NCBI GenBank assembly: GCA_017619935.1 | Contig: JAFZRJ010000032.1 | Span: forward strand, 1-38,895 | Length of the DNA stretch: 38,895 nucleotides | Origin: Muribaculaceae bacterium | GTDB taxonomy: Bacteria > Bacteroidota > Bacteroidia > Bacteroidales > Muribaculaceae | Direction: 5' to 3' | In this document: in pieces, positions 4,582-18,259 of the stretch | Layout: each line of letters starts with the position of its first letter | Numbering within the stretch: the stretch's first letter is position 1 | Translations under genes and position numbers: made by a program | Notes under the pieces: generated by a model | Databases searched by the model: none | What the model was told of the DNA's origin: nothing | Seen by the model: the letters and a program-made list of their open reading frames with translations, nothing else

Positions 4582-7500
4582 ATGGTAGATACAACTGAAT
4601 TGACAGGATTGATCTCGGCGTTGAGAGCCGAGACGGAAGCCGACAGCGTGTCGCCGGAGCGCGTGGGTTACGTGCTTCAACAGATTGTGAACTTCCTGCC
4701 GAGTCTTGACTCGAGCGGTCTGACCGACGATGTAGCGACTGCGTTGGCTACTGCTCGTCAGGCATTGACTTCGGCGCAGGGGGCAACCACGACGGCGAAT
4801 GCCGCCCAGACGGCTGCGACGAGTGCGCAGAACGTGGCTAACGCGGCGAGTTCGACGGCGAATGCGGCGAGCACGCTGGCCGGACAGTGCGAGAGCGCGG
4901 TTGCGGCACTGACCACGCTGGTGGGCCAGCTGCAGACGGCGAGTGAGACAGCGACCACGACAGCGAATGCGGCGAGTGCCGCCGTGGGCGCGTTGCATGA
5001 AGGGGCTAACCAAGCCGGCGGCATGGTGGTGCTGGACTCTAACGGCAAGGTGCCACATGGCCTGATACCCGACGACCTGGCGAACGTGCTGGAGTTCTCG
5101 GGCGTGCTGAACAGTGTGACGGTGACGAGCGGCCGCAGCGAGAGCAAGAGCAGCGACGGCGATGCGCAGGTGTTCTTCGTGGAGAGCCTGAACCAGTTTG
5201 TGCTTGGAGTGCGCACCGATGTGGCGGTGAGCACTGTGGCTCCTGACTTCGTCGCCGCACCGCAACACGCTCCGGGCGTGGGCGCGGTGGTGTCCACACG
5301 ATTGAGTGACCAAGCGGTGGCGGCATTGAAAGACATGCCATTGTTCAACACATTGTTCACCTACTATCTTGACTGGGCTGACCGCGAGCTGTACAGCGAT
5401 GCCCAGTACACTCCGCTGAGTCTGAAGGCGTATGTGTGCACGAGTACCGACACCTTGTATTACTGGAAAAGCGCGGAGCAGGAGCTGGCCTCTATGGGCA
5501 AGGACTACGGCTCGCAGCTGAATACGCTTGGCGAGCGGATGACCGCCGCGGAGTCGGCCGTCGGCCAGCGTCTGTTCCTGAACGGCAACAAGGTGGTGAA
5601 CCGTGTGGGCACGGCCACGTCGCTTGCACAGTTCCTCGCGTTGACCGACGGCAGCGCGTATGCCGGCATCAAGGTGCAGGGCGTGGTGGTGACTTTGTAT
5701 ACCGACGACGGCATGGAGACGTGGCAATGGGACGGCACGACATGGTCGAGCGCGGCGGCATGGTCGAAGTTCGGCGGCAGCGGGAGCGCGACGGGCAATG
5801 TGGTGAACGTGAACGAAATCGCTCCGCGTGCCGATGGATTCTATAACCGTGGCACAGCCGCAAATGCTGTACCCGAGGAGCTGCGCACCGGAGGCCGTAT
5901 CATCACCTTTGAATCGGCTGCAGGGGTGTGGCAGCGGTGGCAGTTCACAGGCACTTTGCTTGCCGACTGGGCTGACGAGACCTGCTGGGTGCCCGACGTG
6001 CGCGGCATCTCGTTCAACGATGCTGCGGCAGCGGTTCCCGACCGTAACGGCATCATCAACCTGAATTATCATGTGACGGTTGACGAAGTGCTGAACAGCG
6101 AGAGCAGTAACCCGATAGCGAACAAGACGGTGACGGCTGCGCTGGAGCAGTTGCGGCTGGGCTTGGCGGCCGGACTGAGCGTTGACCCGGTCAGCAACCA
6201 GTTGTCGCTGCTGGATGCCAACGGCGAGGTGATGAGCAGCGTCACTCTGCCTTCGGGCGGTGGCGGGGCCACGAATCCCACGGCCATCGAGCTGACCATC
6301 GACAGCGCGATGAGCGCGACCATCAAAGAGGGCACGCCTCACCTCGTGGAATACACTTGGCGTCACTACAATATCACCACGAACGTGGACACGCAGTACG
6401 GCGGCCGTGCCGACCTGATTGTGAACGGCAGCACGGTGACGAGCGTTGACGTGACACAGGGCATAGGCTCGTTTGACGTGAGCCCATGGCTGAGTGTGGG
6501 CACGAACAGTCTGCGCGTGCGCATCACGGCCGATGACGGCGTGGTGGCACAGAGTGCGTACATCAAGGTGACGGTGGTGACGCTGGGCCTGAGCAGCAGT
6601 TACTCGCTATCGACGGTGACGGAGGCGGGCACGCCGATTCCTTTCCGCTTTGTAGTGACAGGCAGCGGCGCGAAGGTGGTGAACTTCGAACTCGACGGCG
6701 CCGCGCTGCCGACAGAGACGGTGACCACCAGCGGCGGCACGAGCATCAAGAGCATACCGACGACAGGGCTGAGCCATGGCGCGCACAGCCTCGAAGTGTG
6801 GGCGGAGCGCGAGATTGCCGATGGGGTGATGCTGGAGAGCAACCACCTGTATTTCGACCTGATGATTACGCAGCAGGGCACGACCGACGTGATTGTGGCC
6901 ACCGAATATGACGGTGGCACGATTGAGCAGTACCAGACGCTGATCATCCCCTTCGCGGTGTATGACCCGTTGCACACCACCTGCGAGGTGGAAGTGACGC
7001 TGGACGGCATCCTGCTGACGAGCATGGAGGTCGACCGCACACGGCAGACATTGAGCTGGCGAAGCAAGGAAGCCGGCAGTTACACCTTCGTCATCAGCGC
7101 AGGCGGCACGAGCCGCACCATCGAGGTGACAGTGACAGCAGCGGCCCATCAGGTGACGGCGGAAACGGCAGGCTTGGCCTTGTGGCTGAGCAGCAGCGGC
7201 CGAAGTAATGCGGCGACAAACCGTGCCGACTGGAGTTTCACGCCTGAGGGCGGGGAGGCGTTGAGCGCGGTGTTCCATGATGTGGGCTGGGACGCGCAGA
7301 GCGGCTGGCTGCCCGACGAACACGGCTTGGTGAGCCTCCATCTTGCCGGTGGCGCGCGGTGCGAGATACCGCTGAACCTCTTTGCCTCGGACTGCAAGCT
7401 GGAGGGCAAGACCATCGAGGTGGAGTTCAAGGCAAGCAAGTGCTACGACGAGAGCGCGGTGCTTATCAGCTGCCTGAGCGACGGAGTGGGCTTCGCCATC

Positions 7501-10500
7501 ACGGCGCAGGACTGCTACCTGCAAAGCGCGTTGCGCAAGCGCGTGGGCAGCAAGTTCAAGCAGGACGAGCGAGTGCGTGTGAGCTTCGTGATTCAGCGCA
7601 CTGATGAGCGCCGCTTTATGATGATGTACCTTGACGGCATCCTGAGCGGCGTGGAGCAATATGACACAAGCGACTACTTCGTGCAGAACACGCCGGTGGG
7701 CATAACGCTGGGCAACGTCCTGTGCGAGCTCGACGTGTGGAATGTGCGCGTGTATGACACCTCGCTGAGCATGCGCCAGATGGTGAACAACTTCATCGCG
7801 GATATGGACGATACGGAGGTGATGTTCGCGAAGCTGGAGGCCAATGATGTGCTGAATGACGACAACGCCGACGCGGTGGACTATGACAAGGCTGTGCAGA
7901 TGATACCGTGCATCACGTTCATCGGCACGCTGCCGACGTACAAGGGCGACAAGAAAAAAGACACTAAGATCATCTTCGAGGACCGTCAGCACCCTGAATA
8001 CTCGTTCACCTGCGGCAAGGCACAGACGGACGTGCAGGGCACAAGCTCGCAGTACTACCCTCGCAAGAACTGGAAATTGAAGTTCCTCGAGGATATACAG
8101 ATGACGCAAAGCGGCGCGACGCAGAAGAAATATGCCTTGCGCGGTGTGGACGGCCAAGGCAATGCGGTGGCGCAGAAAGCGGTGAAGACATTCTGCCTGA
8201 AGGCGGATTTCGCGGAGTCGTCGGGCTCGCACAACACCGGCGCGGCGAACTTCATCAACGAGGTGCTGACGGGTGCGGGCATCCTCACGCCTCCGCAGCG
8301 TGTGGACGCAACGGTGCGCACGACGGTGTACGGTTTTCCGGTGCTGATGTTCCATCAGGAAACGGAGAACAGCCCCCGCACGTTTATCGGCAAGTACAAC
8401 TTCAACAACGACAAAAGTACGCAGGACACGTTCGGCTTCGAGAAAATCGCGGACTACAACGGTGCTATGGTGAACCGTGGCGACTGGCTGCTGTGGAACG
8501 GCACGCTGGCCTCGCTGCAGGGCGACTCCGACGCATTCGAGGCCTCGGAGGACGGCGAACTGATGTATCTCATCAACGACCCCGCCGACACGTCGCACTA
8601 CCGCCACTTGGCCGAGTGGAACGATGGCAGCGGAGCCTGGGTGGACAAAGGCGAGCTGTGGCTGTGGGACTATGCGAGCCGCACATGGAAGAACCGTGCC
8701 GGCGCGAGCATCACGGTGGCCAACGGCCTGACGGAGGCGCGTGGCGGCAAGCTGATTGAGAATAACGTGGAGTGCTGGGAGTTCCTGAACAACGCCCACC
8801 CGATGTGCCTGTTCCACAGCTCGGACTGGATCGGCACAGTGACGGGCGACTCAATCCCGAGCTGGTTTGACAGAGACCGTCTGCCAAACGACGGCGGCAC
8901 AATACATGCTCCTTACTGGGCGACGGCGTTCGAACCTCGCTATCCGGACAGCGATGACCTGAACGCGGCCTACGGCGCGGGCAAGATCCCAACCCAGCTG
9001 CGTGGAGTGGTGGACTGGCTGGTGAACCTTGACATCAGCGACGAGAATCTGAGCGCGTCACAGCTGGCCGACCGCAAGGCGGCATTCCTCGCCGGTTACC
9101 AGAGCTATTTCCACAAGGACATGATGCTGGCTTACGACAATATCCGCGAGGTGCTGATAGCCAGCGACCAAGGCGCGAAAAACATGATGTGGGTGATGTT
9201 CGACGGATTGTGTTATCCTATCTTCTACGATAACGACACGCTGTGGACGCTGAACAACGAGGGCCGCATACAGTTCCACCCCTATGTGGAACTCCATGAC
9301 AAGGACGCGCTGGGCAAGGACGTGTTCAACGGCGAGAGCAGCACGCTGTGGAACTTGATCGAGCAGACGCTGGAAACGGACAAATCGGCGAACTATGAGA
9401 GGTTGGTGTCGCAAGGCAACCTGACGTATGCACGCGCGCTGTACTGGTTCAACGAGCGTCAGAGCGACCGCTGGTGCGAGACAATCTACAATCAGGACAC
9501 GAAATATAAGTACCTCGACAGCTTCGGCGTGGTGGGAGGCGCGGACAACACCGCCCAGAACTACCTCGACATCGCTCAGGGCAGCCGCTCGCACCACCGC
9601 AAGTGGGTGATGAGCGAGCGTTTCGCCTATGTGAACGCCAAACGCTGCGTGGGCAGTTATCGCGAGAGCGCTGTGTACCTGCGCGCGAACACCGCGGGCG
9701 CCTCGACGGTTCCAAGCTCGGTGAGCGTGACGGTGACGGCGGCACAGGACTGGTACTTTGGCTTCCGCTTCAGCGGCAACGCCGGCTACAGTTCGCGTCT
9801 GATCAGAAAGAACGAGAGCTACACCTTCTCGGCTCCGGCGGGGAGCCAGCCCAATGACACGGAGACCTACATCTACCAGGCCGACCGCATCAAGAGTCTG
9901 GGTGACCTGAGCGCGTTGTACCCGACGAGCCTTGTGGTGGGCAACTGTCGATTGCTGGAGGAACTGATTGTGGGCAATTCGACTCAAGGATATGTGGGCA
10001 AACTGGCGAGCCTGACGCTGGGCACTCACCCGCTGCTGCGCTACATCAACGTGGTGAACTGCGCAACCTTGCAGAGTACGCTGGACGCGAGCGGATGCCG
10101 CGCGCTGGAGGAGATTGACGCGAGGGGCTCACGCATCACGTCGGTGCTGCTGCCGACGGCATGCACCATCGACACGCTGCGTCTGCCATCATCGGTGGTG
10201 CAGCTGCAGTTCGACCGTCTGCCGAACCTCACCTACGAGGGCTTGACCCTTGAAGGCTACGGCTCGATTCAGACATTGGACATTGTGGGTTGCCCGAACC
10301 TCGACGCGGTGCGCCTGCTGGGCGACATTCTCGCCACTGAAGGCAACGCACTGCAGTATGTTCGCTTGACCGACCTCGACCTGTCGGGTGACGGCAGCGC
10401 GCTGATAGCGCTGAAGGAGAAAGGCGTGCACGGAGCGGTGAACCGCACGGGAAACCCCGAGCTGTTCGGCACGTATTCGCTGACGACATACCTTGACCCG

Positions 10501-12240
10501 TCGCTGGTGGCGGAGTTGCAGGCATACTTCGAGCACCTGACTATATACAACGCGCAGTACACGGTGATAGAGTTTGACGACACACTGACCTATGACGGCA
10601 ACGTGACGAATATGGACAACGGCACGTATGACGGCAACGGCGGATTGGGCTATGTGCCGAGTGGCCACATCGTTACGCTGATGCGCCAGCTCCACGCCTA
10701 CCGTGGCGAGTTCCTGCCGTCGCGCGGTGTGATGCAGCTGAAGCAAATCAGCGATGACGACATCGAGCAACTTGTGGACGGCACGGCGAGCAACCTTGAC
10801 GACCAGAGCCTGAACGGGCACGACATCTTCGTGCGTTTCCCCCGTTACTGGTATAAGGGCGTGAACGACCATCTGAACCAGAAAAAGTACTTCTGCCTGA
10901 GCACTGAATTGAACGAGCCTCGCTCAAGCGCCCACCATGTGACGCGCCACACGCTCGGCAACCTGCTGGTGGCGGCTGACCGCAGTGTGTATATCGACGA
11001 TTTTGCCGTGGGCGACACGTTCGGCACCTCGCAGCTCGCTACGACGGAAGGCTTGAACAGCGTGTACCGCATGGACGTGACAGGCATGAAGCGAGTGCGT
11101 TGGCCGGGCATCAACAGCCAGACGGTGGGCTGCCTGTTCCTTGATGCCTCGGGCAAGGTACTGAGCAAGGTGTCGGGTTATATCGCCCACGCGCTGACGG
11201 ACTACATCCTGGGCGACTATGTGTTTGTCGCTGTTCCGTCGGGCGCGGCTAGCTTCGTGTTCACGAGCGTGCAGGGTCAGGACACGCTGGAGTGTATCGC
11301 CGTGGACAGCCTCCAGATAGAGGCGATGGAGCCGGACTGGGTGCTGCACGAGGAATGCCTGGTGGGCATGTACAAGGCGAGCCGCGACTCGCAGGGCCGC
11401 CTGCGCAGCGTGAGCGGTGTCACGCCGGTGTACGGCTCGAACACAAATGGCACGGCATCGTACTGGAACTATGACGAACAGGGCGAGCTGACGGTTGGAC
11501 AGCCTCAGACATCGGTGACGATGAACCGCTCGATGAAGGACTTGAGCAACTTGGCGAAATGCCGTGGCGCGGGCTACCAGCTGGTGGACTACGAGATGCA
11601 CAAGGACATCGCGAACTTGTGGATGGCGCTTTACGGCCGCCGAAACAGTCAGGCGATAAACGGCAGCGGCGTGAACTACGGCACGGCGACGGGCGGCTCG
11701 AACACGGCTACGGTGAGCGGTGTGACATACAAGAGCCCGATGCGTGAGAGCAGCGGCAGCCAGCGTCCTCGCTCGCTGGGCTTGGAGGACTGGGCTTGCA
11801 ACGGCCGCGAGTGGATGGACGGCGTGATGGTGAACGTGAGCAGCTTCGCCGGCTGGTACCGCAGTTTCAAGACGAACAAGCCCAACGGCGCGGCTCCGAG
11901 CGGCAGCATGGCGAATGCGGTGTGGCATGTGCTGATGCCTGACGGCACGGAGCGCGCGGTGCAGGGCGTGAGCGGCTCGACGGAGATTTGCCGTGTGCGC
12001 CACGGCCGTTATTGCGACGTGGTACCGAGCAAGCTGGTGACGAACTCAAGTTGGGACACCTACTACTGTGACCAGCAGGAGTACAATGCCAGCACCGCCC
12101 GTGCTGTTGCGCGCTCCGGCGTCAGCTTCAATGCGAGCAACGGTTTCGTGTACGTCTTCGCGAACAGCGACTCGTCGAATGCGTACAGCTACATCGGCTC
12201 GCGGCTAGCCTTCAGGGGCGAGTGCGAAATCGTTGAGTAG
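4582..12240 (+). CDS. Giant tail fibre/adhesin, DGR target protein
   Basis: A 2552-residue mosaic protein, the DGR target. An alanine/threonine-rich coiled coil (residues about 40-140) probably trimerises and attaches it to the tail. Then come several Ig-like beta segments (about 570-850), a LamG-like region (about 853-1073), a CotH-like region (about 1130-1640, with GTSSQYYPRKNWKLKF and DNDTLWTLNNE), a leucine-rich-repeat-like stretch (about 1766-1960) and a large C-terminal C-type-lectin/FGE-like fold (about 2000-2552). The final 47 residues are the variable repeat. It should bind a host surface receptor at the tail tip. Domain calls other than the variable repeat are by eye and approximate. 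GC content is much higher than in the cassette at 1-2393. Confidence 0.88.
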   Translation: MVDTTELTGLISALRAETEADSVSPERVGYVLQQIVNFLPSLDSSGLTDDVATALATARQALTSAQGATTTANAAQTAATSAQNVANAASSTANAASTLAGQCESAVAALTTLVGQLQTASETATTTANAASAAVGALHEGANQAGGMVVLDSNGKVPHGLIPDDLANVLEFSGVLNSVTVTSGRSESKSSDGDAQVFFVESLNQFVLGVRTDVAVSTVAPDFVAAPQHAPGVGAVVSTRLSDQAVAALKDMPLFNTLFTYYLDWADRELYSDAQYTPLSLKAYVCTSTDTLYYWKSAEQELASMGKDYGSQLNTLGERMTAAESAVGQRLFLNGNKVVNRVGTATSLAQFLALTDGSAYAGIKVQGVVVTLYTDDGMETWQWDGTTWSSAAAWSKFGGSGSATGNVVNVNEIAPRADGFYNRGTAANAVPEELRTGGRIITFESAAGVWQRWQFTGTLLADWADETCWVPDVRGISFNDAAAAVPDRNGIINLNYHVTVDEVLNSESSNPIANKTVTAALEQLRLGLAAGLSVDPVSNQLSLLDANGEVMSSVTLPSGGGGATNPTAIELTIDSAMSATIKEGTPHLVEYTWRHYNITTNVDTQYGGRADLIVNGSTVTSVDVTQGIGSFDVSPWLSVGTNSLRVRITADDGVVAQSAYIKVTVVTLGLSSSYSLSTVTEAGTPIPFRFVVTGSGAKVVNFELDGAALPTETVTTSGGTSIKSIPTTGLSHGAHSLEVWAEREIADGVMLESNHLYFDLMITQQGTTDVIVATEYDGGTIEQYQTLIIPFAVYDPLHTTCEVEVTLDGILLTSMEVDRTRQTLSWRSKEAGSYTFVISAGGTSRTIEVTVTAAAHQVTAETAGLALWLSSSGRSNAATNRADWSFTPEGGEALSAVFHDVGWDAQSGWLPDEHGLVSLHLAGGARCEIPLNLFASDCKLEGKTIEVEFKASKCYDESAVLISCLSDGVGFAITAQDCYLQSALRKRVGSKFKQDERVRVSFVIQRTDERRFMMMYLDGILSGVEQYDTSDYFVQNTPVGITLGNVLCELDVWNVRVYDTSLSMRQMVNNFIADMDDTEVMFAKLEANDVLNDDNADAVDYDKAVQMIPCITFIGTLPTYKGDKKKDTKIIFEDRQHPEYSFTCGKAQTDVQGTSSQYYPRKNWKLKFLEDIQMTQSGATQKKYALRGVDGQGNAVAQKAVKTFCLKADFAESSGSHNTGAANFINEVLTGAGILTPPQRVDATVRTTVYGFPVLMFHQETENSPRTFIGKYNFNNDKSTQDTFGFEKIADYNGAMVNRGDWLLWNGTLASLQGDSDAFEASEDGELMYLINDPADTSHYRHLAEWNDGSGAWVDKGELWLWDYASRTWKNRAGASITVANGLTEARGGKLIENNVECWEFLNNAHPMCLFHSSDWIGTVTGDSIPSWFDRDRLPNDGGTIHAPYWATAFEPRYPDSDDLNAAYGAGKIPTQLRGVVDWLVNLDISDENLSASQLADRKAAFLAGYQSYFHKDMMLAYDNIREVLIASDQGAKNMMWVMFDGLCYPIFYDNDTLWTLNNEGRIQFHPYVELHDKDALGKDVFNGESSTLWNLIEQTLETDKSANYERLVSQGNLTYARALYWFNERQSDRWCETIYNQDTKYKYLDSFGVVGGADNTAQNYLDIAQGSRSHHRKWVMSERFAYVNAKRCVGSYRESAVYLRANTAGASTVPSSVSVTVTAAQDWYFGFRFSGNAGYSSRLIRKNESYTFSAPAGSQPNDTETYIYQADRIKSLGDLSALYPTSLVVGNCRLLEELIVGNSTQGYVGKLASLTLGTHPLLRYINVVNCATLQSTLDASGCRALEEIDARGSRITSVLLPTACTIDTLRLPSSVVQLQFDRLPNLTYEGLTLEGYGSIQTLDIVGCPNLDAVRLLGDILATEGNALQYVRLTDLDLSGDGSALIALKEKGVHGAVNRTGNPELFGTYSLTTYLDPSLVAELQAYFEHLTIYNAQYTVIEFDDTLTYDGNVTNMDNGTYDGNGGLGYVPSGHIVTLMRQLHAYRGEFLPSRGVMQLKQISDDDIEQLVDGTASNLDDQSLNGHDIFVRFPRYWYKGVNDHLNQKKYFCLSTELNEPRSSAHHVTRHTLGNLLVAADRSVYIDDFAVGDTFGTSQLATTEGLNSVYRMDVTGMKRVRWPGINSQTVGCLFLDASGKVLSKVSGYIAHALTDYILGDYVFVAVPSGAASFVFTSVQGQDTLECIAVDSLQIEAMEPDWVLHEECLVGMYKASRDSQGRLRSVSGVTPVYGSNTNGTASYWNYDEQGELTVGQPQTSVTMNRSMKDLSNLAKCRGAGYQLVDYEMHKDIANLWMALYGRRNSQAINGSGVNYGTATGGSNTATVSGVTYKSPMRESSGSQRPRSLGLEDWACNGREWMDGVMVNVSSFAGWYRSFKTNKPNGAAPSGSMANAVWHVLMPDGTERAVQGVSGSTEICRVRHGRYCDVVPSKLVTNSSWDTYYCDQQEYNASTARAVARSGVSFNASNGFVYVFANSDSSNAYSYIGSRLAFRGECEIVE
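12097..12217 (+). repeat. DGR variable repeat (VR)
   Basis: 121 bp at the 3' end of the fibre gene align without gaps to the template repeat 278 bp downstream. All 16 differences fall at template adenines (8 A>T, 7 A>G, 1 A>C); the other 86 positions are identical. Changed residues are 2514-2516, 2519, 2526, 2529, 2535-2537 and possibly 2543-2545. They sit in AAC-derived codons, which can give 15 amino acids and never a stop. The first 24 bp and an ATCGGCTCGCGGCTA block (12193-12207) are invariant; the latter is the best candidate for the initiation-of-homology element. Confidence 0.96.
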
Positions 12241-12251
12241 CTTGCGCAAGC
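12240..12251. repeat. 12-bp palindrome just after the fibre stop
   Basis: GCTTGCGCAAGC is a perfect palindrome starting at the last base of the TAG stop. It lies between the variable repeat and the terminator hairpin and could form part of a cruciform recognised during retrohoming, by analogy with the BPP-1 DGR. Confidence 0.4.
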
Positions 12252-12256
12252 GTCGC

Positions 12257-12302
12257 AAAACGATAGTGGGAGAGCCCGCAAGGGCTGCTCCCACTCGTTT
12301 TT
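12257..12302 (+). terminator. Terminator / possible DGR cruciform with GCAA tetraloop
   Basis: A long hairpin: AAAACG pairs with CGTTTT, AGTGGGAG with CTCCCACT and GCCC with GGGC, closing on a GCAA (GNRA) loop, and a T-run follows. It ends the fibre transcript, keeping template and RT on a separate unit. In BPP-1 a stem-loop with a GNRA loop downstream of the VR aids target recognition, so a second role is possible. Another hairpin, ACCCCGC/GCGGGGT, follows at 12303-12319. Confidence 0.75.
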
Positions 12303-12337
12303 ACCCCGCGCAGCGGGGTCGATTTAGAAAAATTTCG

Positions 12338-12345
12338 TAATTTTG
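12338..12345 (+). promoter_or_regulatory. -7 box for template RNA and RT
   Basis: TAATTTTG matches the Bacteroidota -7 consensus TAnnTTTG. No clear TTTG lies 19-21 bp upstream, where the second hairpin sits. Transcription from here would begin near 12351, about 24 bases before the template repeat, and continue into the RT gene. Confidence 0.5.
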
Positions 12346-12350
12346 TCGCC

Positions 12351-12697
12351 TGTTAGGCGGAAGTTCCCATGGGGGCCCGTGCTGTTGCGCGCTCCGGCAA
12401 CAACAACAATGCGAACAACGGTTTCGTGTACGTCAACGCGAACAACGACTCGTCGAATGCGAACAACAACATCGGCTCGCGGCTAACAATCAAGGCACAC
12501 TGCCCCCATGTTCGGCATGGGTCGGCGGTTTTCATCGCAACACCTGCGCCGCCAACGTGTTTGGCAAGGCAAGGAGCGAGGGAACGGAGCCTCGGCAAAC
12601 CTCACTGTTGAGTTAGGCCGGAACAAAAGAATGTGGCTTGTGGTGGCTGGTAACCGCCAACGGTGAACGTCATGAAGCCACAGTGTCCTGAAGGCTG
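12351..12697 (+). ncRNA. Template-repeat RNA with structured spacer
   Basis: This gap between fibre and RT holds no protein gene. The inferred RNA carries the template repeat, then a 202-nt spacer rich in stems: CCCATG/CATGGG around TTCGG (12505-12521), GGCGG/CCGCC, GTTTG/CAAAC and a GTGGCT/AGCCAC long-range pair. In the BPP-1 DGR the spacer downstream of the template binds RT and primes cDNA synthesis. The same role here is inferred from position and structure. Confidence 0.5.
12375..12495 (+). repeat. DGR template repeat (TR)
   Basis: The invariant donor copy of the variable repeat, in the same orientation and 278 bp downstream. It holds 35 adenines, mostly in 11 AAC and 2 AAT codons when read in the fibre frame, so it is tuned for NNC diversification. 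Homology stops cleanly at 12495 (next bases GCA.. versus GCG..); the unambiguous core is 12375-12485, where 12 of 30 adenines and 0 of 81 other bases differ. The short open frame over it is not a gene. Confidence 0.96.
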
Positions 12698-14011
12698 ATG
12701 AAAAGACATGGCAACTTGATTGCCCGCATCGTGGAACAGGGCAACATGGAACAGAGCTTTGATGACGTAATCGGCAACCTCACCAATGACCGCCGAAAGG
12801 CGGAGTTCAAGCAGCGAAAGGCAGAAGTGGTGGCAAGGTTGCAGACTTCCATTGCCGACGGATCCTTCAGAATCACGCAGTATAACAACCTGCTGGTGAC
12901 CGACGGACCGAAGGTGCGCACGGTGCAGGCACCGCCCATCGTGGAGCGCGTGGGATGCCACGCCATCATGAACATCGTGGATGATGTGCTGTACCGCTCG
13001 GTGGTACCGTCGAGCGCGGCATCAATCAGAGGGCGAGGAATGCACTACCTGTTCAAGATGATGCAGCGTGACATCAGATGCGACACGGAAGGCACGAGCT
13101 ACTTCTACAAATGCGACATCAAAAAGTTTTACGAGAGTATTGACCAGGATGTGATGATGGACATCATTCACCGGCACATCAAGGATAATGTCCTGCTGCC
13201 CATGCTGGAGAACTTCGTCAGACTGATGCCTCATGGGTTGGCCATAGGGCTACGCTCGTCGCAATGCTTCGGCAACATCCTGCTATCGCCTGTTGACCAC
13301 TTCATGAAGGAGGTGGTCAAAGTGCGCTATTATTACCGCTATTGTGATGACATCGTGATGCTCGCAGGCGACAAGTCCACGCTGTGGCACTGGCGCGACC
13401 TGCTGCATGACCAACTCGAGACTTTACACCTGACCGTAAAAGAGAACGAGACGCTGCGGCCCCTTGCCGACGGCCTCGACTTTCTGGGATATGTCAACTA
13501 TGGCACGCACGCCCTGTTGCGAAAACGCATCAAACAGAGGTTCGCGAGGCACATGGCAGATGTCAAGAGCCGCAAACGTCGCATCGCGCTAATGGGCGCA
13601 TTCAAAGGAATGGCGGTACACGCTGACTGCAATCATCTCTATAAATCAATAACTCATAAAGAAATGAAACGATTCAGCGAACTGGGCATATCATTTGTGC
13701 CCGCAGATGGCAAGAAGCGCTTCCCCGGAAAAGTGATGCGCCTCGGTGCCATAGTGAACAAAGAGATCGAACTGCATGACTTCGAGACAGGACTGAGCAC
13801 GTCCTATGGCAGCGACCGCTATGTGGTCAGCTTCCGCGACCCGCAGACCGGCGAATGGGGCAAGTTCTTCACCACCTCGGAGGAAATGCAGAACATCCTC
13901 GACCAAATCGCCATGCAGGAGGATGAGAGCGGCGAGAAGATTTTCCCGATTCTCACCACCATCGTGAGCGAGGTGTTTGACGGCAACAAAGTGAAGTACC
14001 GCTTCACTTGA
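12698..14011 (+). CDS. DGR reverse transcriptase
   Basis: A 437-residue reverse transcriptase that copies the template RNA into adenine-mutagenised cDNA. Palm motifs are visible: CDIKKFY (139-145, catalytic D140), the DGR-type motif-4 variant AIGLRSSQCFGN (182-193), the active-site box YCDD (215-218) and GLDFLGY (259-265). A C-terminal extension of about 100 residues (about 330-437) is beta-rich (RYVVSFRDPQTGEWGKFF) and is not part of the usual RT core. No accessory avd-like gene is found nearby. The ATG at 12698 has no Shine-Dalgarno site. The gene is downstream of, and probably cotranscribed with, the template repeat. Confidence 0.96.
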   Translation: MKRHGNLIARIVEQGNMEQSFDDVIGNLTNDRRKAEFKQRKAEVVARLQTSIADGSFRITQYNNLLVTDGPKVRTVQAPPIVERVGCHAIMNIVDDVLYRSVVPSSAASIRGRGMHYLFKMMQRDIRCDTEGTSYFYKCDIKKFYESIDQDVMMDIIHRHIKDNVLLPMLENFVRLMPHGLAIGLRSSQCFGNILLSPVDHFMKEVVKVRYYYRYCDDIVMLAGDKSTLWHWRDLLHDQLETLHLTVKENETLRPLADGLDFLGYVNYGTHALLRKRIKQRFARHMADVKSRKRRIALMGAFKGMAVHADCNHLYKSITHKEMKRFSELGISFVPADGKKRFPGKVMRLGAIVNKEIELHDFETGLSTSYGSDRYVVSFRDPQTGEWGKFFTTSEEMQNILDQIAMQEDESGEKIFPILTTIVSEVFDGNKVKYRFT

Positions 14012-14021
14012 AAATCCCTGT

Positions 14022-14069
14022 AAAGACAGAAACGTCGGGCTTCAAAATAGCTCGGCGTTTTGTCTTTTT
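14022..14069 (+). terminator. Intrinsic terminator after RT
   Basis: AAAGACA-G-AAACG (14022-14034) pairs with CGTTTTGTCTTT (14056-14067), with one bulged base; an inner CGGGCT/AGCTCG stem is possible, and T's follow. It ends the template/RT transcript. Confidence 0.75.
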
Positions 14070-14119: not shown

Positions 14120-17100
14120 ATGAGCACAACAAGTAGCGCAACAACCACACTCTATGTCAATGGCCGACCCGCCGAAGACGAACTGCGTCGTCTCCGTGGC
14201 GAATTGGACCATTACAAGAAGCAGTTGATGGACATTGCCGCCGACCCAAGCAAAGGTCTCGGCTCTCAAGCATGGAACAGCACATTGAAGAAAGTCAAGG
14301 CTACGGAGAAAGAACTTGACAAGGTGCAAAGCAATGTGTCGAGCGTGACACAAGCCCTCTCTCGTCTTGACAAAGCCACTCCTGAGGAACTGCGCAAAGC
14401 CTTACGACAACTCAACAAGGAGTTGGCGAGCATCGAGCGCGGCTCAAAGGCTTGGGACGAGCAGGTCAAGAAAATCCGAGCCGTCAAAGATGAACTCGCT
14501 AAGGTTAGAGCAGAGACAAAGGAACACACTTCGCTGTGGGAACGCTTCGCCAAGAAAATGTTCGACTGGGGCGCGGCCCTGCAGGTAGTTTTCGCCGCAA
14601 TAACCGGAATCACCATGACCGCCCGCAGGGCTGTGGAAGCATTCGCCGAGATGGACCAGGAAATGGCGAATGTTCGCAAATACACCGGTATGACCGCCGA
14701 ACAGGTCGCGGACTTGAATGAGGAGTTCAAGAAAATGGATACTCGATCAAGTCGCGAGCAACTCAACAAACTCGCACAGGATGCAGGTCGTCTCGGCAAA
14801 CAGTCGAAAGAGGATGTGATGGGATTTGTGCGGGCAGCCGACCAAATCAATGTAGCTCTCGATGAACTGGGCGAGGGCGCCACACTGACTTTGTCGAAAA
14901 TTGCCGGAGCATTTGGCGATGAAGACAAATATGGCACCGAACAGGCTTTGCTGAAAACCGGTTCAGTAATCAACGAACTTTCCCAAAACTGTCGTGCTTC
15001 GGCCCCCTATCTAGCAGAGTTCGCCCAGCGCCTGACCGGTGCGGGCACAACGGCGAAGATGACCACGCCGCAGTTGATGGCTTTTGGAGCCGTTCTTGAC
15101 TCGAACGGTGCTCAATTGGAATCGTCGGCCACAGCACTAGGACAGTTGATTATAAAACTCTACCGCGACCCGGCGAAATATGCTGAGGCCGCGGGGATGG
15201 ATGTCATAAAGTTTACCAACCTCCTCAAGACAGATGCCAATGAGGCTGTCTTGATGTTCCTTGAAACGCTGCATAATGCAGGCAATTTGGATGTGTTGGC
15301 TCCGATGCTTGCCGACATGGGAGAGAAAGGTTCTCGTTCGGTGCAGACATTAACCATGCTTGCAGGAAAAATCGACGAGGTGCGGGCACAACAAGCGGCA
15401 GCAAACCAAGCCTTCGAAGAAGGAACTTCTATCACTAAGGAGTTCAACGTACAGAACAATACTGTACAGGCTGGATTGGAGAAGGCAAAGAAACACTTCA
15501 ACGAGATGGCTGTCCAACTTGGCGAGAAACTCGCTCCGGCAATGAAGTATGCCATCACCAGCACCAGTGCCATGATGAAAGTCCTTTCTGGCGTTATCAC
15601 TTTCATCAGTGAGCATAAGCTGCTTATCACCACGCTCACGCTTGCCATTATTGGCTATACGGCAGCAGTAAAGGCAAACACTATAGCCAAAGCCTCGGAT
15701 GCCGTATTTGACAAAATAGCTAATGCCCTTTTGGCCACACGACGTGTCGTGGTGCTTGCAGCCAGTGCTGCCTATAATGCGCTCACGGGTAACATGACCC
15801 GCGCACGCGCAGCCACCATGCTACTGAACAACACACTCAAACTTTCGCCCTGGGGACTCGCCATCGCTGGAGCAACCGCCCTTGTTGGCGCCCTTATCGG
15901 GTTGCTGCAGAAAATGGAGGCAAATAGGAAGGAGGCTAAGCGACTCGCCGAGGAACACCGAAAATGGATAAAATCAATTTCGGACATCGATGAAGCCTCG
16001 AATCGCTATTCATCAAACGAACTCACACGTCTGAAAGCGCTGTATAAGGCAGCCACCGACGAGGCTTCGGCACGAGAAAAGCGAGTGGAGGCAGCAAAGC
16101 AAATGCAGAACCTTTATCCAGCAGTTTTCTCCAATTTTTCCACCGAAGCAATCATGGCGGGGCAAGCCAAAGATGCTTACGACAAACTGACTCTCTCGAT
16201 TATTGCAAATGCAAGAGCGCGTGCCGCTGCTGAAAAAATACAAGAAAATGAGAAAAAACTGCTCGACATAGAGGACGAAATTCGCAGTAACGAAGCGTGG
16301 GCACATAATGCCGGAGTTCGTGCAGATAAGGCTCGTACGCAGCAGAGGCAGAATAACGATCGCAATTCATCTCAGCACGCCTTCATGCCCGCAGGAGTTC
16401 AGACTCATGCTGAGCAAGAACTGTCTGAGACAATTCGTGACAATACTAAGCAGCAGCAAATTGCCAATGATAACATCGCCCGCCTCGAAGCGCAACAAAG
16501 AGACTTGAATGCATCAAATGAACGTCTTGCGAAAATTCCGGGTGTATCAGAATTGCTTGCTGGTTCTGACACACCTGCAACACCGCCAAAGGTCACTTAC
16601 ACGCCTTCTGGGGGTGATGAAGACAAAAAAGGTGGTGGTAGCTCCAAATCGGAAGACAAGTTTAAAGCCGAAAAAAATTGGCGTGAGGAACAGATTGCGC
16701 TCGCCAAAATCTCCTACCTCAAGGGTGAGACCGACTACGAGCAGCACCAGCAGAGGCTGGAACAAATCGACATGCAGTATGCCGAGAAACTGATGGCACG
16801 CACCGACCTCACCGAGCAAGAGCGTCTTGACGCACAAGTGAAATTCTGGGAAGCGAAACAGAAACTCGACAAGCGCGCACAAGCGCAGACCATTGCCGAG
16901 GAGAATGCAGCCTATGAGGACCTGCGAATGCAGATACAGGAAGATTATCTCCAAAACCGCATTTCAAAGGAGGCTTACGATATGCAGATGGAGAATATCG
17001 AGTTTGCACATCTGCGGGCTATGACGCAGCTCACTAAGGAAGGCACTGATGAGCGTCGCCGTGCAGAGGATGCTTACCGACAGAAGCTCGTTGCCGACCA

Positions 17101-18259
17101 GCAGAAGCGGCAGAAAGAATATGCTGACAAGGAAAAGAAGCATCAAGAGCAGCTGAAACAAATGTGGGACAAATACTTTGTCACTGATGATGAATCCAAA
17201 AAACAACAATACCAAACGGCATTAACTTTACTTGATGAAGTCTATAAATCAGAATTGGCTAAATGTGCCGGCAATAATGAGAAGAAACTGGAGCTGGACA
17301 AGCGATATGCCAAGGCTCGAAAGAAACTCTACGACGAGATCTTCAAGAACGATAAGGATGGGCAGAAGTCGTGGAACGACTGGATTGGCGAAGCTCTTGA
17401 CAAAATCTTTGGTGACGGCACATGGGAGAAGTATGGCGATACCGTCAAGCAAGCCTTTGCCTCGATGACCGCGATGATGCAGAGCTTCAACCAAATGGCA
17501 CAGGCTGAAGCCGAGGCGAAGATTGCCCGTCTCGAAAAGCAGTACGACCGCGAGATCTCGATGGCGGAGGGCAACAACCGCAAGGTGAAAGCCCTCGAGC
17601 GCAAGAAAGAAAAGGAAACAGCCCGCATCAAGGCTGAGGCGCAGCGCAAGGAGTTCGCCCAGCAGGTGATGAACGCCATCTCATCGACCGCACTTGCTGC
17701 CATCAATGCCTATGCCAGCGCGTCGAAAATCGCTTGGTGGCTCGGTCCTGTGGCTGCCGGGCTCGCACTCGCTGCAGGTGCCGTGCAGATTGCCGCCATC
17801 AAGAAGCAGCAGGAGGCAAGTGAGGCGAAAGGCTTCGCGGAGGGCGGTTTCACCCCGAAAGGCCCGAAGGACAAACCGGTGGGTGTGGTCCATGCGGGCG
17901 AGTGGGTGGCTTCGCAGCGGCTGCTCGCCAATCCTGTCGCGCGTCCGATGATCGAGGCGCTTGACTACGCCCAGCGTAACAACACGCTCGGCTCGCTGCG
18001 CCCTGCCGATGTGTCGCGTTCGGTCACCGCCCCTGCCGTTATTGCCGGTGCGGCAACCGACGGACAGAACGAACGCCTGATGGTGGCCGTTGCCGCCGCC
18101 CTGGGCAACTACGACGGCACAATGGCAAGACTCACCGACCGACTGAACGAGCCGTTTGTCACCGTCAACACCGTTACCGGCGACATGGGAATCAAGGAGG
18201 CGCAGGACGAGTACCAACGGCTGATGAACAACACGCTCCCTAAATCGAAACGCAAATGA
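14120..18259 (+). CDS. Phage tail tape measure protein
   Basis: A 1379-residue tape measure protein, which sets tail length and lines the tail tube. The N-terminus (about 20-150) is coiled coil. A TP901-type core follows (about 160-460: MDQEMANVRKYTGMTAEQV, LIIKLYRDPAKYAEAAGM). Hydrophobic segments lie at about 495-515 and 565-600, long charged coiled coils run from about 610 to 1170, and the glycine-rich C-terminus has FAEGGFTPKGPKDKPVGVVHAGEW, typical of the family. It starts 15 bp after its promoter element and overlaps the next gene by 4 bp (ATGA). Confidence 0.92.
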   Translation: MSTTSSATTTLYVNGRPAEDELRRLRGELDHYKKQLMDIAADPSKGLGSQAWNSTLKKVKATEKELDKVQSNVSSVTQALSRLDKATPEELRKALRQLNKELASIERGSKAWDEQVKKIRAVKDELAKVRAETKEHTSLWERFAKKMFDWGAALQVVFAAITGITMTARRAVEAFAEMDQEMANVRKYTGMTAEQVADLNEEFKKMDTRSSREQLNKLAQDAGRLGKQSKEDVMGFVRAADQINVALDELGEGATLTLSKIAGAFGDEDKYGTEQALLKTGSVINELSQNCRASAPYLAEFAQRLTGAGTTAKMTTPQLMAFGAVLDSNGAQLESSATALGQLIIKLYRDPAKYAEAAGMDVIKFTNLLKTDANEAVLMFLETLHNAGNLDVLAPMLADMGEKGSRSVQTLTMLAGKIDEVRAQQAAANQAFEEGTSITKEFNVQNNTVQAGLEKAKKHFNEMAVQLGEKLAPAMKYAITSTSAMMKVLSGVITFISEHKLLITTLTLAIIGYTAAVKANTIAKASDAVFDKIANALLATRRVVVLAASAAYNALTGNMTRARAATMLLNNTLKLSPWGLAIAGATALVGALIGLLQKMEANRKEAKRLAEEHRKWIKSISDIDEASNRYSSNELTRLKALYKAATDEASAREKRVEAAKQMQNLYPAVFSNFSTEAIMAGQAKDAYDKLTLSIIANARARAAAEKIQENEKKLLDIEDEIRSNEAWAHNAGVRADKARTQQRQNNDRNSSQHAFMPAGVQTHAEQELSETIRDNTKQQQIANDNIARLEAQQRDLNASNERLAKIPGVSELLAGSDTPATPPKVTYTPSGGDEDKKGGGSSKSEDKFKAEKNWREEQIALAKISYLKGETDYEQHQQRLEQIDMQYAEKLMARTDLTEQERLDAQVKFWEAKQKLDKRAQAQTIAEENAAYEDLRMQIQEDYLQNRISKEAYDMQMENIEFAHLRAMTQLTKEGTDERRRAEDAYRQKLVADQQKRQKEYADKEKKHQEQLKQMWDKYFVTDDESKKQQYQTALTLLDEVYKSELAKCAGNNEKKLELDKRYAKARKKLYDEIFKNDKDGQKSWNDWIGEALDKIFGDGTWEKYGDTVKQAFASMTAMMQSFNQMAQAEAEAKIARLEKQYDREISMAEGNNRKVKALERKKEKETARIKAEAQRKEFAQQVMNAISSTALAAINAYASASKIAWWLGPVAAGLALAAGAVQIAAIKKQQEASEAKGFAEGGFTPKGPKDKPVGVVHAGEWVASQRLLANPVARPMIEALDYAQRNNTLGSLRPADVSRSVTAPAVIAGAATDGQNERLMVAVAAALGNYDGTMARLTDRLNEPFVTVNTVTGDMGIKEAQDEYQRLMNNTLPKSKRK

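What the first reader, a model, noticed from the sequence alone, without database searches (positions are those of the whole stretch)
12097..14011. Diversity-generating retroelement acting on a giant phage tail fibre
VR and TR align over 121 bp with 16 differences, all at template adenines (16 of 35 A's; 0 of 86 other bases), and a DGR-type reverse transcriptase follows. Eleven AAC codons in the template mean NNC outcomes without stops. Known: DGRs mutate adenines during cDNA synthesis and home to the VR (BPP-1, Bordetella). Inference: this prophage can vary its receptor-binding tip.
Basis: partly seen in the sequence, partly recalled or inferred. Interest (0 to 1): 0.93.

Follow-up and report, generated by a model that had tools for sequence, protein, structure and literature searches.

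The report
Phage tail-tip mutating retroelement
A prophage in a gut-type bacterium carries a complete-looking diversity-generating retroelement that rewrites the tip of its giant tail fibre; the machine is a known kind, but comparing relatives suggests how its template RNA is folded.

Summary
Confirmed: a diversity-generating retroelement (DGR). VR 12097-12217 and TR 12375-12495 differ at 16 sites, all template A. Twelve (of 30 A in the first 111 bases) are diversification; four lie in the initiation site (IMH), fixed in relatives (VR GCC-TTC, never seen in TR). The reverse transcriptase (RT, 12698-14011) models best on a solved DGR enzyme, the fibre tip (weaker model) on DGR variable proteins. 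Relatives point to activity: 15 distinct Hankyphage-type VRs over one TR differ from it only at A; two relatives in the window's genus share a TR and differ at 18 VR sites, all A.

Added here: the TR-RT spacer is Rfam orphan RNA RT-3; a box 5' of TR pairs with it (308 of 343 Watson-Crick cells, permuted 173 +/- 8), so a long-range helix brackets the template. No bAvd match was found in the 66%-complete genome, and the DUF4376 gene that follows the RT in 77 of 78 viral relatives (labelled Avd in Hankyphage) is absent at this locus.

A new member of the Hankyphage-like DGR clade. Activity of this prophage was not shown. Whether the helix is already in the BPP-1 cryo-EM paper could not be checked.

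The parts
4582..12240 (+). giant tail-fibre gene (2552 aa), the DGR target; C-terminal tip modelled as a C-type-lectin-like DGR variable domain
   Evidence: phrog_14959 over 46-2552 and phrog_5302 'tail protein' over 2256-2544; Foldseek best matches TaqVP 5vf4 E 1.1e-7 (TM by query 0.42), then Mtd E 4.5e-3; no Pfam match
12097..12207 (+). variable repeat (VR), diversified part: 12 differences from TR, all at template A
12208..12219 (+). IMH (initiation of mutagenic homing) core GCCTTCAGGGGC; encodes AFRG; GCC-TTC fixed in relatives, diverged from TR
12265..12295 (.). inverted repeat 3' of VR: 13-bp stem with one bulged G, loop GCAA, followed by CGTTTTT; candidate target hairpin and/or fibre terminator
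   Evidence: (VR-TR region z -6.1, 60 shuffles), coordinates
12338..12345 (+). TAATTTTG, Bacteroidetes-type -7 promoter motif (motif recalled), inferred promoter of the template RNA
   Evidence: TAnnTTTG in 38 of 70 loci against 335 of 17141 control windows
12355..12368 (+). 5' box AGGCGGA-AGTTCCC; 12362-12368 is the 5' strand of the long-range helix
   Evidence: 60 of 70 loci, 0 of 70 before VR; helix
12375..12485 (+). template repeat (TR)
12486..12495 (+). IMH* side of the TR (differs from VR IMH)
12505..12521 (+). local inverted repeat CCCATG-TTCGG-CATGGG between TR and RT-3
   Evidence: coordinates; seen directly in sequence; not tested in relatives
12533..12680 (+). RT-3 RNA (RF03068), structured spacer of the template RNA
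   Evidence: 54.5 bits, gathering 40.5, E 2.9e-11 (alignment)
12580..12599 (+). 3' strand of the long-range helix (GGGAAC 12580-12585; GCCT 12589-12592) and conserved anchor GAGCCTCGGCAAA
   Evidence: 6 of the 7 helix positions pair in the window
12698..14011 (+). DGR reverse transcriptase, 437 aa; GLRSSQ and YCDD motifs intact
   Evidence: PF00078 and phrog_1423; best fold match 8ub7
13664..14008 (+). extra C-terminal domain of the RT (residues 323-437), mostly strands in the model; phrog_19665
   Evidence: best stretches of all 22 PDB sequence matches end by profile position 314 of 428
14029..14061 (+). terminator-like hairpin after the RT
   Evidence: 4 such sites found in the region, 2.5 expected from shuffles

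Best explanation
It is a diversity-generating retroelement of the Hankyphage-like clade in a Bacteroidales prophage. A template RNA, probably starting from its own promoter (about 12350, inferred), runs through the TR and the RT-3 RNA. A 7-bp helix (6 pairs in the window) between the box just 5' of the TR and a loop of RT-3 brackets the TR as one large loop. The RT binds this RNA, copies the TR into cDNA with random bases opposite A, and the cDNA replaces the VR up to the IMH core (GCCTTC), changing up to 29 A positions (12121-12193) of the C-type-lectin-like tip of the tail fibre without creating stops. Shown by computation: the parts, the A-only pattern, the IMH constancy, the helix covariation in the clade, and VR variation in relatives. 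Inferred: activity of this copy, the promoter, priming from RT-3, the helix as end-stop or scaffold for the cDNA, and receptor binding by the tip.
For: VR/TR pattern. RT family, motifs and fold. Fibre-tip fold. VR-TR-RT order in 20 of 25 relatives (L057 lacked the upstream part) and in 62 of 80 viral loci, 55 of 64 with more than 1500 nt upstream. Hankyphage type: 15 distinct VRs from 16 records sharing a 112-nt TR, 194 differences at A (30 of them the two fixed IMH sites) and 0 at 82 non-A sites. L039/L042: TR identical, 18 VR-VR differences all at A, upstream 1500 nt 98.1% identical. RT-3 in the window and in 24 of 25 clade loci tested. Helix: 308 of 343 WC cells, 5000 permutations mean 173.5 sd 8.4 maximum 208. 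Hankyphage DGR activity was measured by others (PMC12135933, passages read).
Against: No second copy of this prophage: no exact match to a 24-base TR block in viral contigs, so activity here is not shown. No bAvd match in G000 (genome 66% complete), and the DUF4376 gene is missing at the locus; Avd is needed by the BPP-1 element (PMC12875486, passage) and PMC10743442 (passage) calls Avd or an analog essential. Gene order differs from a relative, so the prophage could be decaying. The VR/TR scans penalise non-A mismatches, so A-bias is partly built in; one search is the fairer test, from which L069 was left out because its VR does not fit its TR. The fibre-tip match is loose (TM by query 0.42, rmsd about 11) and has no sequence support in the PDB.
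Confidence: 0.93

Rival explanations
1. A formerly active DGR that is now frozen: the prophage lost DUF4376 and was rearranged, and the VR is a fossil of past diversification.
For: DUF4376 follows the RT in 77 of 78 viral loci and 23 of 23 other loci but not in the window (the HMM was built from 20 of those 23 plus L057). Tape measure lies after the RT here, before the fibre in G100. No bAvd match in G000.
Against: RT reading frame and motifs intact. RT-3 still above its gathering score. 0 of 81 non-A sites changed in the diversified 111 bases, so little drift since the last homing. The genome holds another DUF4376 gene on contig C12.
Confidence: 0.2
2. The RT belongs to another RT class (retron, group II intron or antiviral DRT) and the repeat pair is incidental.
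For: NCBIfam gives sub-threshold Drt3a, group II, retron, Drt2, Drt4 and AbiA hits.
Against: All are far below their cut-offs. Best sequence and fold match is a DGR RT. The repeat pair travels with this RT in most relatives.
Confidence: 0.01
3. The repeat pair is an ordinary duplication that drifted apart, with A differences by chance.
For: None beyond the existence of the repeat.
Against: P 1.1e-10 for all differences at A; the same pattern in relatives.
Confidence: 0.005

Closest known systems
Hankyphage (Bacteroides phage p00, BK010646) DGR, Benler 2018 PMC6199706 and PMC12135933 (passages read)
   Same: RT about 47% identical over all 437 residues, C-terminal domain included; fibre-VR-TR-RT order; RT-3 spacer; RLAFRG IMH; C-type lectin target (said by Benler)
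   Different: Window lacks the DUF4376 gene after the RT that is labelled Avd in Hankyphage records and in a figure legend; in p00 the tape measure lies before the fibre, in the window after the RT
Bordetella phage BPP-1 DGR
   Same: A-specific VR/TR, DGR RT (8ub7, TM 0.86 by target length; that 8ub7 is the BPP-1 enzyme is recalled), structured spacer RNA between TR and RT (Rfam Phage_DGR in BPP-1), IMH/IMH*, tail target
   Different: No bAvd (PF22296) match in the window's genome; RT has an extra ~115-aa C-terminal domain; the spacer matches RT-3, not Phage_DGR; promoter motif before the TR; hairpin loop GCAA rather than GRNA and farther from the VR (Guo 2011, PMC3240598, passages read)
Rfam RT-3 RNA (RF03068)
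   Same: Window 12533-12680 is a member above the gathering score
   Different: Rfam's name and type line do not say DGR; here it is placed as the 3' part of DGR template RNAs, and one of its loops pairs with a box outside the Rfam model

Membership tests
Diversity-generating retroelement (DGR) | VR/TR pair with differences confined to template A | tested here: met
   16 of 16 at A, P 1.1e-10
Diversity-generating retroelement (DGR) | RT of the DGR class: GxxxSQ motif (motif recalled), YxDD, closest to known DGR RT | tested here: met
   GLRSSQ and CDD invariant or near-invariant; 8ub7 DGR RT best by sequence and fold
Diversity-generating retroelement (DGR) | VR at the 3' end of a target gene with a C-type-lectin-like (or Ig) fold | tested here: met
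   The fibre stop codon ends 23 nt after the VR; model of the last 353 residues (mean pLDDT 76) matches TaqVP and Mtd, loosely
Diversity-generating retroelement (DGR) | IMH in VR and non-identical IMH* in TR | tested here: met
   GCC-TTC in 63 of 64 readable VRs, 22 other hexamers in TR
Diversity-generating retroelement (DGR) | Mutagenic homing activity of this element | not testable with these tools
   No reads and no second copy of this prophage; signs of activity only in relatives
BPP-1-type DGR with Avd | bAvd gene beside the RT (usual, not required of all DGRs) | tested here: not met
   PF22296: 0 in G000 (66% complete); of the listed matches none within 10 kb of the window's RT or the 20 relatives' RTs, while 11 listed matches lie within 2 kb of more distant RTs (tables compared by hand; the list is cut)
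BPP-1-type target hairpin | 7-10 bp GC-rich stem, GRNA loop, 4-34 bp from VR | tested here: inconclusive
   Hairpin at 12265-12295, 13-bp stem with bulge, loop GCAA, 47-57 nt from VR end, followed by T-run
Rfam RT-3 (RF03068) | Covariance-model score above gathering threshold | tested here: met
   54.5 against 40.5 bits
Hankyphage-like DGR cassette | DUF4376 ('Avd') gene directly after RT | tested here: not met
   No HMM match in the window below E 1 nor within 1.2 kb of the RT

The most novel reading that the evidence does not exclude
The clade to which this element belongs uses a self-contained template RNA: own promoter, TR clamped between a conserved 5' box and the orphan RT-3 RNA by a covarying long-range helix that sets the cDNA end, and an RT whose C-terminal beta-rich domain replaces Avd, so that neither Avd nor the DUF4376 protein is needed. 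RT-3 (and probably RT-17) are then unrecognised DGR template RNAs, and GCCTTC is a DNA-level homing signature of the clade.
Probability: 0.4. Interest if true: 0.68.

Novelty: new member of a known kind. Interest (0 to 1): 0.5.

Why it matters
The element is a further case of phages of gut-type Bacteroidales that can rewrite their tail tips. More generally, the comparison gives testable structure for a large clade of DGRs (289 viral stretches encode a relative of the RT): it places an orphan Rfam RNA (RT-3) as the 3' part of DGR template RNAs, predicts a long-range helix bracketing the template, marks which positions of the VR belong to the homing site rather than to diversity, and questions whether the gene called Avd in Hankyphage is the accessory factor. 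That assignment was made on isoelectric point and molecular weight (PMC6199706, passage read).

Tried and rejected
Rejected: retron, DRT or group II RT; chance duplication; counting all 16 A differences as diversity. A search for a second copy of the window's TR in viral contigs found none, and a search of its genome gave no further VR. Searches for a DUF4376 gene in the window found nothing. The BPP-1 equivalent of the long-range helix (AGGGCAGG with TCTGTCCT) is not significant on its own: 196 of 500 shuffles reach it; L027, L028 and L022 singly give 53, 26 and 29 of 500, and in L027 and L028 the pairing site differs from the clade's. The hairpin 3' of the VR cannot be told from a terminator here. 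A sigma-70 scan gave no site at the inferred promoter (other promoter types are not covered).

Limits of the counts. In one search the own spacer is the best or tied best partner of its box for only 5 of 56 loci, because CCC/GGG is shared by most; the evidence is in the permutations and the anchored counts, which dropped 7 of 56 loci (L003, L148 too short; L112, L120, L142, L154, L170 no box by the pattern) and kept L109, whose anchor is probably misplaced. The second segment (AGGY with RCCU) pairs in 47 of 49 loci but mostly by G-U (30), so it shows pairing without clear covariation. Six of 70 loci gave no readable VR end (L126, L127, L131, L134, L145, L146), and the reading pattern itself asked for R-L/I-A/G-F/L, so only the codon choice, not the amino acids, is tested. 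P-values and permutations treat related loci as independent; some loci are near-duplicates (L004/L005; L041/L092). L126 gives 10 of the 22 non-A differences. The Hankyphage-type test used 18 of 118 phage records that matched the RT: 17 share the TR, L077 has another, L069 was dropped. The structure model of the RT C-terminal domain was not searched apart from the whole.

Paper searches: ten. No listing or passage I saw ties RT-3 to DGRs, but I opened only some of the papers listed; RF03068 appears in passages of PMC7657543 and PMC11701678 as a structure revision only. Weinberg 2017, Handa 2018, Naorem 2017 and Handa 2025 are not held, so priority is open.
Full report
Observation. All 16 differences fall on the 35 template A, none on the 86 other bases; P 1.1e-10. 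The VR is near the end of a 2552-aa fibre ORF (4582-12240), and a 437-aa RT ORF follows at 12698-14011. The first 111 bases of the template hold 11 AAC codons in frame, and no substitution at A creates a stop.

What it is. The RT matches PF00078 and phrog_1423. Its AlphaFold model (mean pLDDT 88.7, pTM 0.69) matches a solved DGR reverse transcriptase best (8ub7, E 6.2e-20, TM 0.86 by target length and 0.66 by query; that this is the BPP-1 enzyme is recalled). The fibre-tip model (pLDDT 76.3) matches the DGR variable protein TaqVP (E 1.1e-7, TM by query 0.42), then Mtd (E 4.5e-3) and, weaker, formylglycine-generating enzymes; sequence alone finds no fibre relative in the PDB or Pfam. The fibre lies in a prophage that occupies about the first 20 kb of the contig, with a head-protease-like and a tape-measure gene; from about 21.8 kb on, the genes identified are chromosomal in kind. 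The window is the whole contig, so the prophage is cut on the left.

Relatives. The RT is about 47% identical to that of Hankyphage, a DGR phage described in PMC6199706 and shown active in PMC12135933 (passages read). In the window's genus, 8 of 101 genomes including its own carry a close RT (E up to 1e-60). VR-TR pairs were found upstream of the RT in 20 of 25 other loci (276 A and 8 non-A differences summed from its table) and in 62 of 80 viral loci (963 A, 22 non-A). These scans favour A mismatches, so a fairer test was made on fixed frames. Of 18 Hankyphage-type records, 17 share a 112-nt TR. Leaving out L069, whose VR does not fit that template, the 16 VRs are 15 distinct sequences with 194 differences from TR, all at A (30 of these are the two fixed IMH sites), and 27 polymorphic columns, all at A. 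L039 and L042, from two genomes of the window's genus, share the TR exactly and differ at 18 VR sites, all A, while the 1500 nt upstream are 98.1% identical. The clade's DGR therefore works, or did so recently.

Homing site. In 70 distinct loci the VR 3' end could be read in 64. All 64 have GCC and 63 have TTC at the Ala-Phe of RLAF, although GCC is only 32% and TTC 75% of those codons elsewhere in the fibres, and the neighbouring Arg, Leu and Gly codons vary. The TRs have 22 different hexamers there, never GCCTTC. This is conservation at DNA level at the point where TR and VR part, as expected for an IMH.

Template RNA. The stretch between TR and RT is Rfam RT-3 (12533-12680, 54.5 bits, gathering 40.5). 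RT-3 lies just upstream of the RT in 24 of 25 clade loci tested (L022 missed); under stricter filters it matched 4 of 393 genomes of the order. RT-17 matched 2 of 10 more distant loci. In BPP-1 the stretch between TR and RT is Rfam Phage_DGR. So RT-3 is best read as the clade's DGR spacer RNA. A box GGYRGA followed by a pyrimidine-rich stretch lies 11-21 nt 5' of the TR in 57 of 70 loci and 38 nt in three more, before the VR in none, and in 0.85% of control windows. The seven bases after GGYRGA are complementary to the seven before a conserved GAGCCTCGGCAAC in the spacer. In 49 of 56 non-redundant loci that could be anchored, 308 of 343 cells are Watson-Crick and 12 are G-U. 5000 permutations of partners give 173.5 +/- 8.4, at most 208; sliding the partner by 1-2 bases gives 99-147. 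Permutations on freely searched pairings agree, 0 of 20000 each. In the window the pairs are GTTCCC (12363-12368) with GGGAAC (12580-12585). TAnnTTTG, the Bacteroidetes -7 motif (recalled), occurs in the 65 nt before the TR in 38 of 70 loci against 2.0% of control windows; in the window it is TAATTTTG at 12338-12345. I infer an RNA with its own promoter, in which the TR is a loop closed by this helix. PMC12875486 (passages read) says that in BPP-1 the spacer folds, recruits bRT-Avd and primes cDNA, and that a motif 5' of TR ends synthesis. The helix offers a simple structural reason for such an end-stop, but I have not shown it, and the possible equivalent in BPP-1 is not significant alone.

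Accessory proteins. bAvd (PF22296, which matches BPP-1 Bbp7) has no match in G000. None of the listed matches lies within 10 kb of the window's RT or the 20 relatives' RTs (the nearest is about 19 kb away, in G049), though 11 listed ones lie within 2 kb of other RTs (compared by hand; the list is cut). The DUF4376 gene labelled Avd in Hankyphage follows the RT in 77 of 78 viral loci but not in the window, where a terminator-like site and the tape measure follow. In the same genome a DUF4376 gene sits beside an endolysin on a contig where no RT was found, so it is not DGR-specific, but its tight link with this RT keeps a DGR role possible. Either it is a fibre-module protein, or the window's element borrows or lacks its helper. 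The RT's extra C-terminal domain (residues 323-437) is my candidate replacement for Avd; this is inference.

Verdict. A DGR of the Hankyphage-like clade acting on a fibre tip: confirmed as to anatomy, with activity inferred from relatives. New member of a known kind. The RNA findings concern the whole clade and raise the interest; their priority could not be checked.

Noticed in passing
L050 8590-8729, compared with L048: The template repeat itself is mutated: 13 differences from the TR of L048, all at A of L048, with the IMH* side unchanged; the RT of that locus is split between frames. It looks like homing or conversion into the template.
   Followed up: partly
L007 3853-11769 and 11768-11936: In Bacteroides phage BKO1-TP3 the fibre gene ends in an AAC-rich TR-like sequence that runs straight into RT-3: VR and TR seem to have collapsed into one.
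   Followed up: partly
L048, L051: TR-like sequence and RT present but no VR in the 20 kb held (RT-3 was tested only for the L048 site, as L018): the target may lie elsewhere or be lost.
   Followed up: no
L069 1805-1921: A Hankyphage-type record whose VR does not fit its own TR, as if the fibre tip came by recombination from a phage with another template.
   Followed up: no
window 14120-18259: The tape-measure gene lies after the RT; in G100 its relative lies well before the fibre. Rearrangement, or possibly an assembly join.
   Followed up: partly
L023, L028: Rfam RT-17 RNA lies beside the RTs of two more distant loci; in L028 it lies between a VR/TR pair and the RT, so it too may be a DGR template RNA.
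   Followed up: no
window 12265-12295 and equivalents between VR and TR: In 17 of 21 loci the VR-TR interval folds better than shuffles (z below -2), several with a bulged G in a long stem; a T-run follows in some but not all, so it may not be only a terminator.
   Followed up: partly
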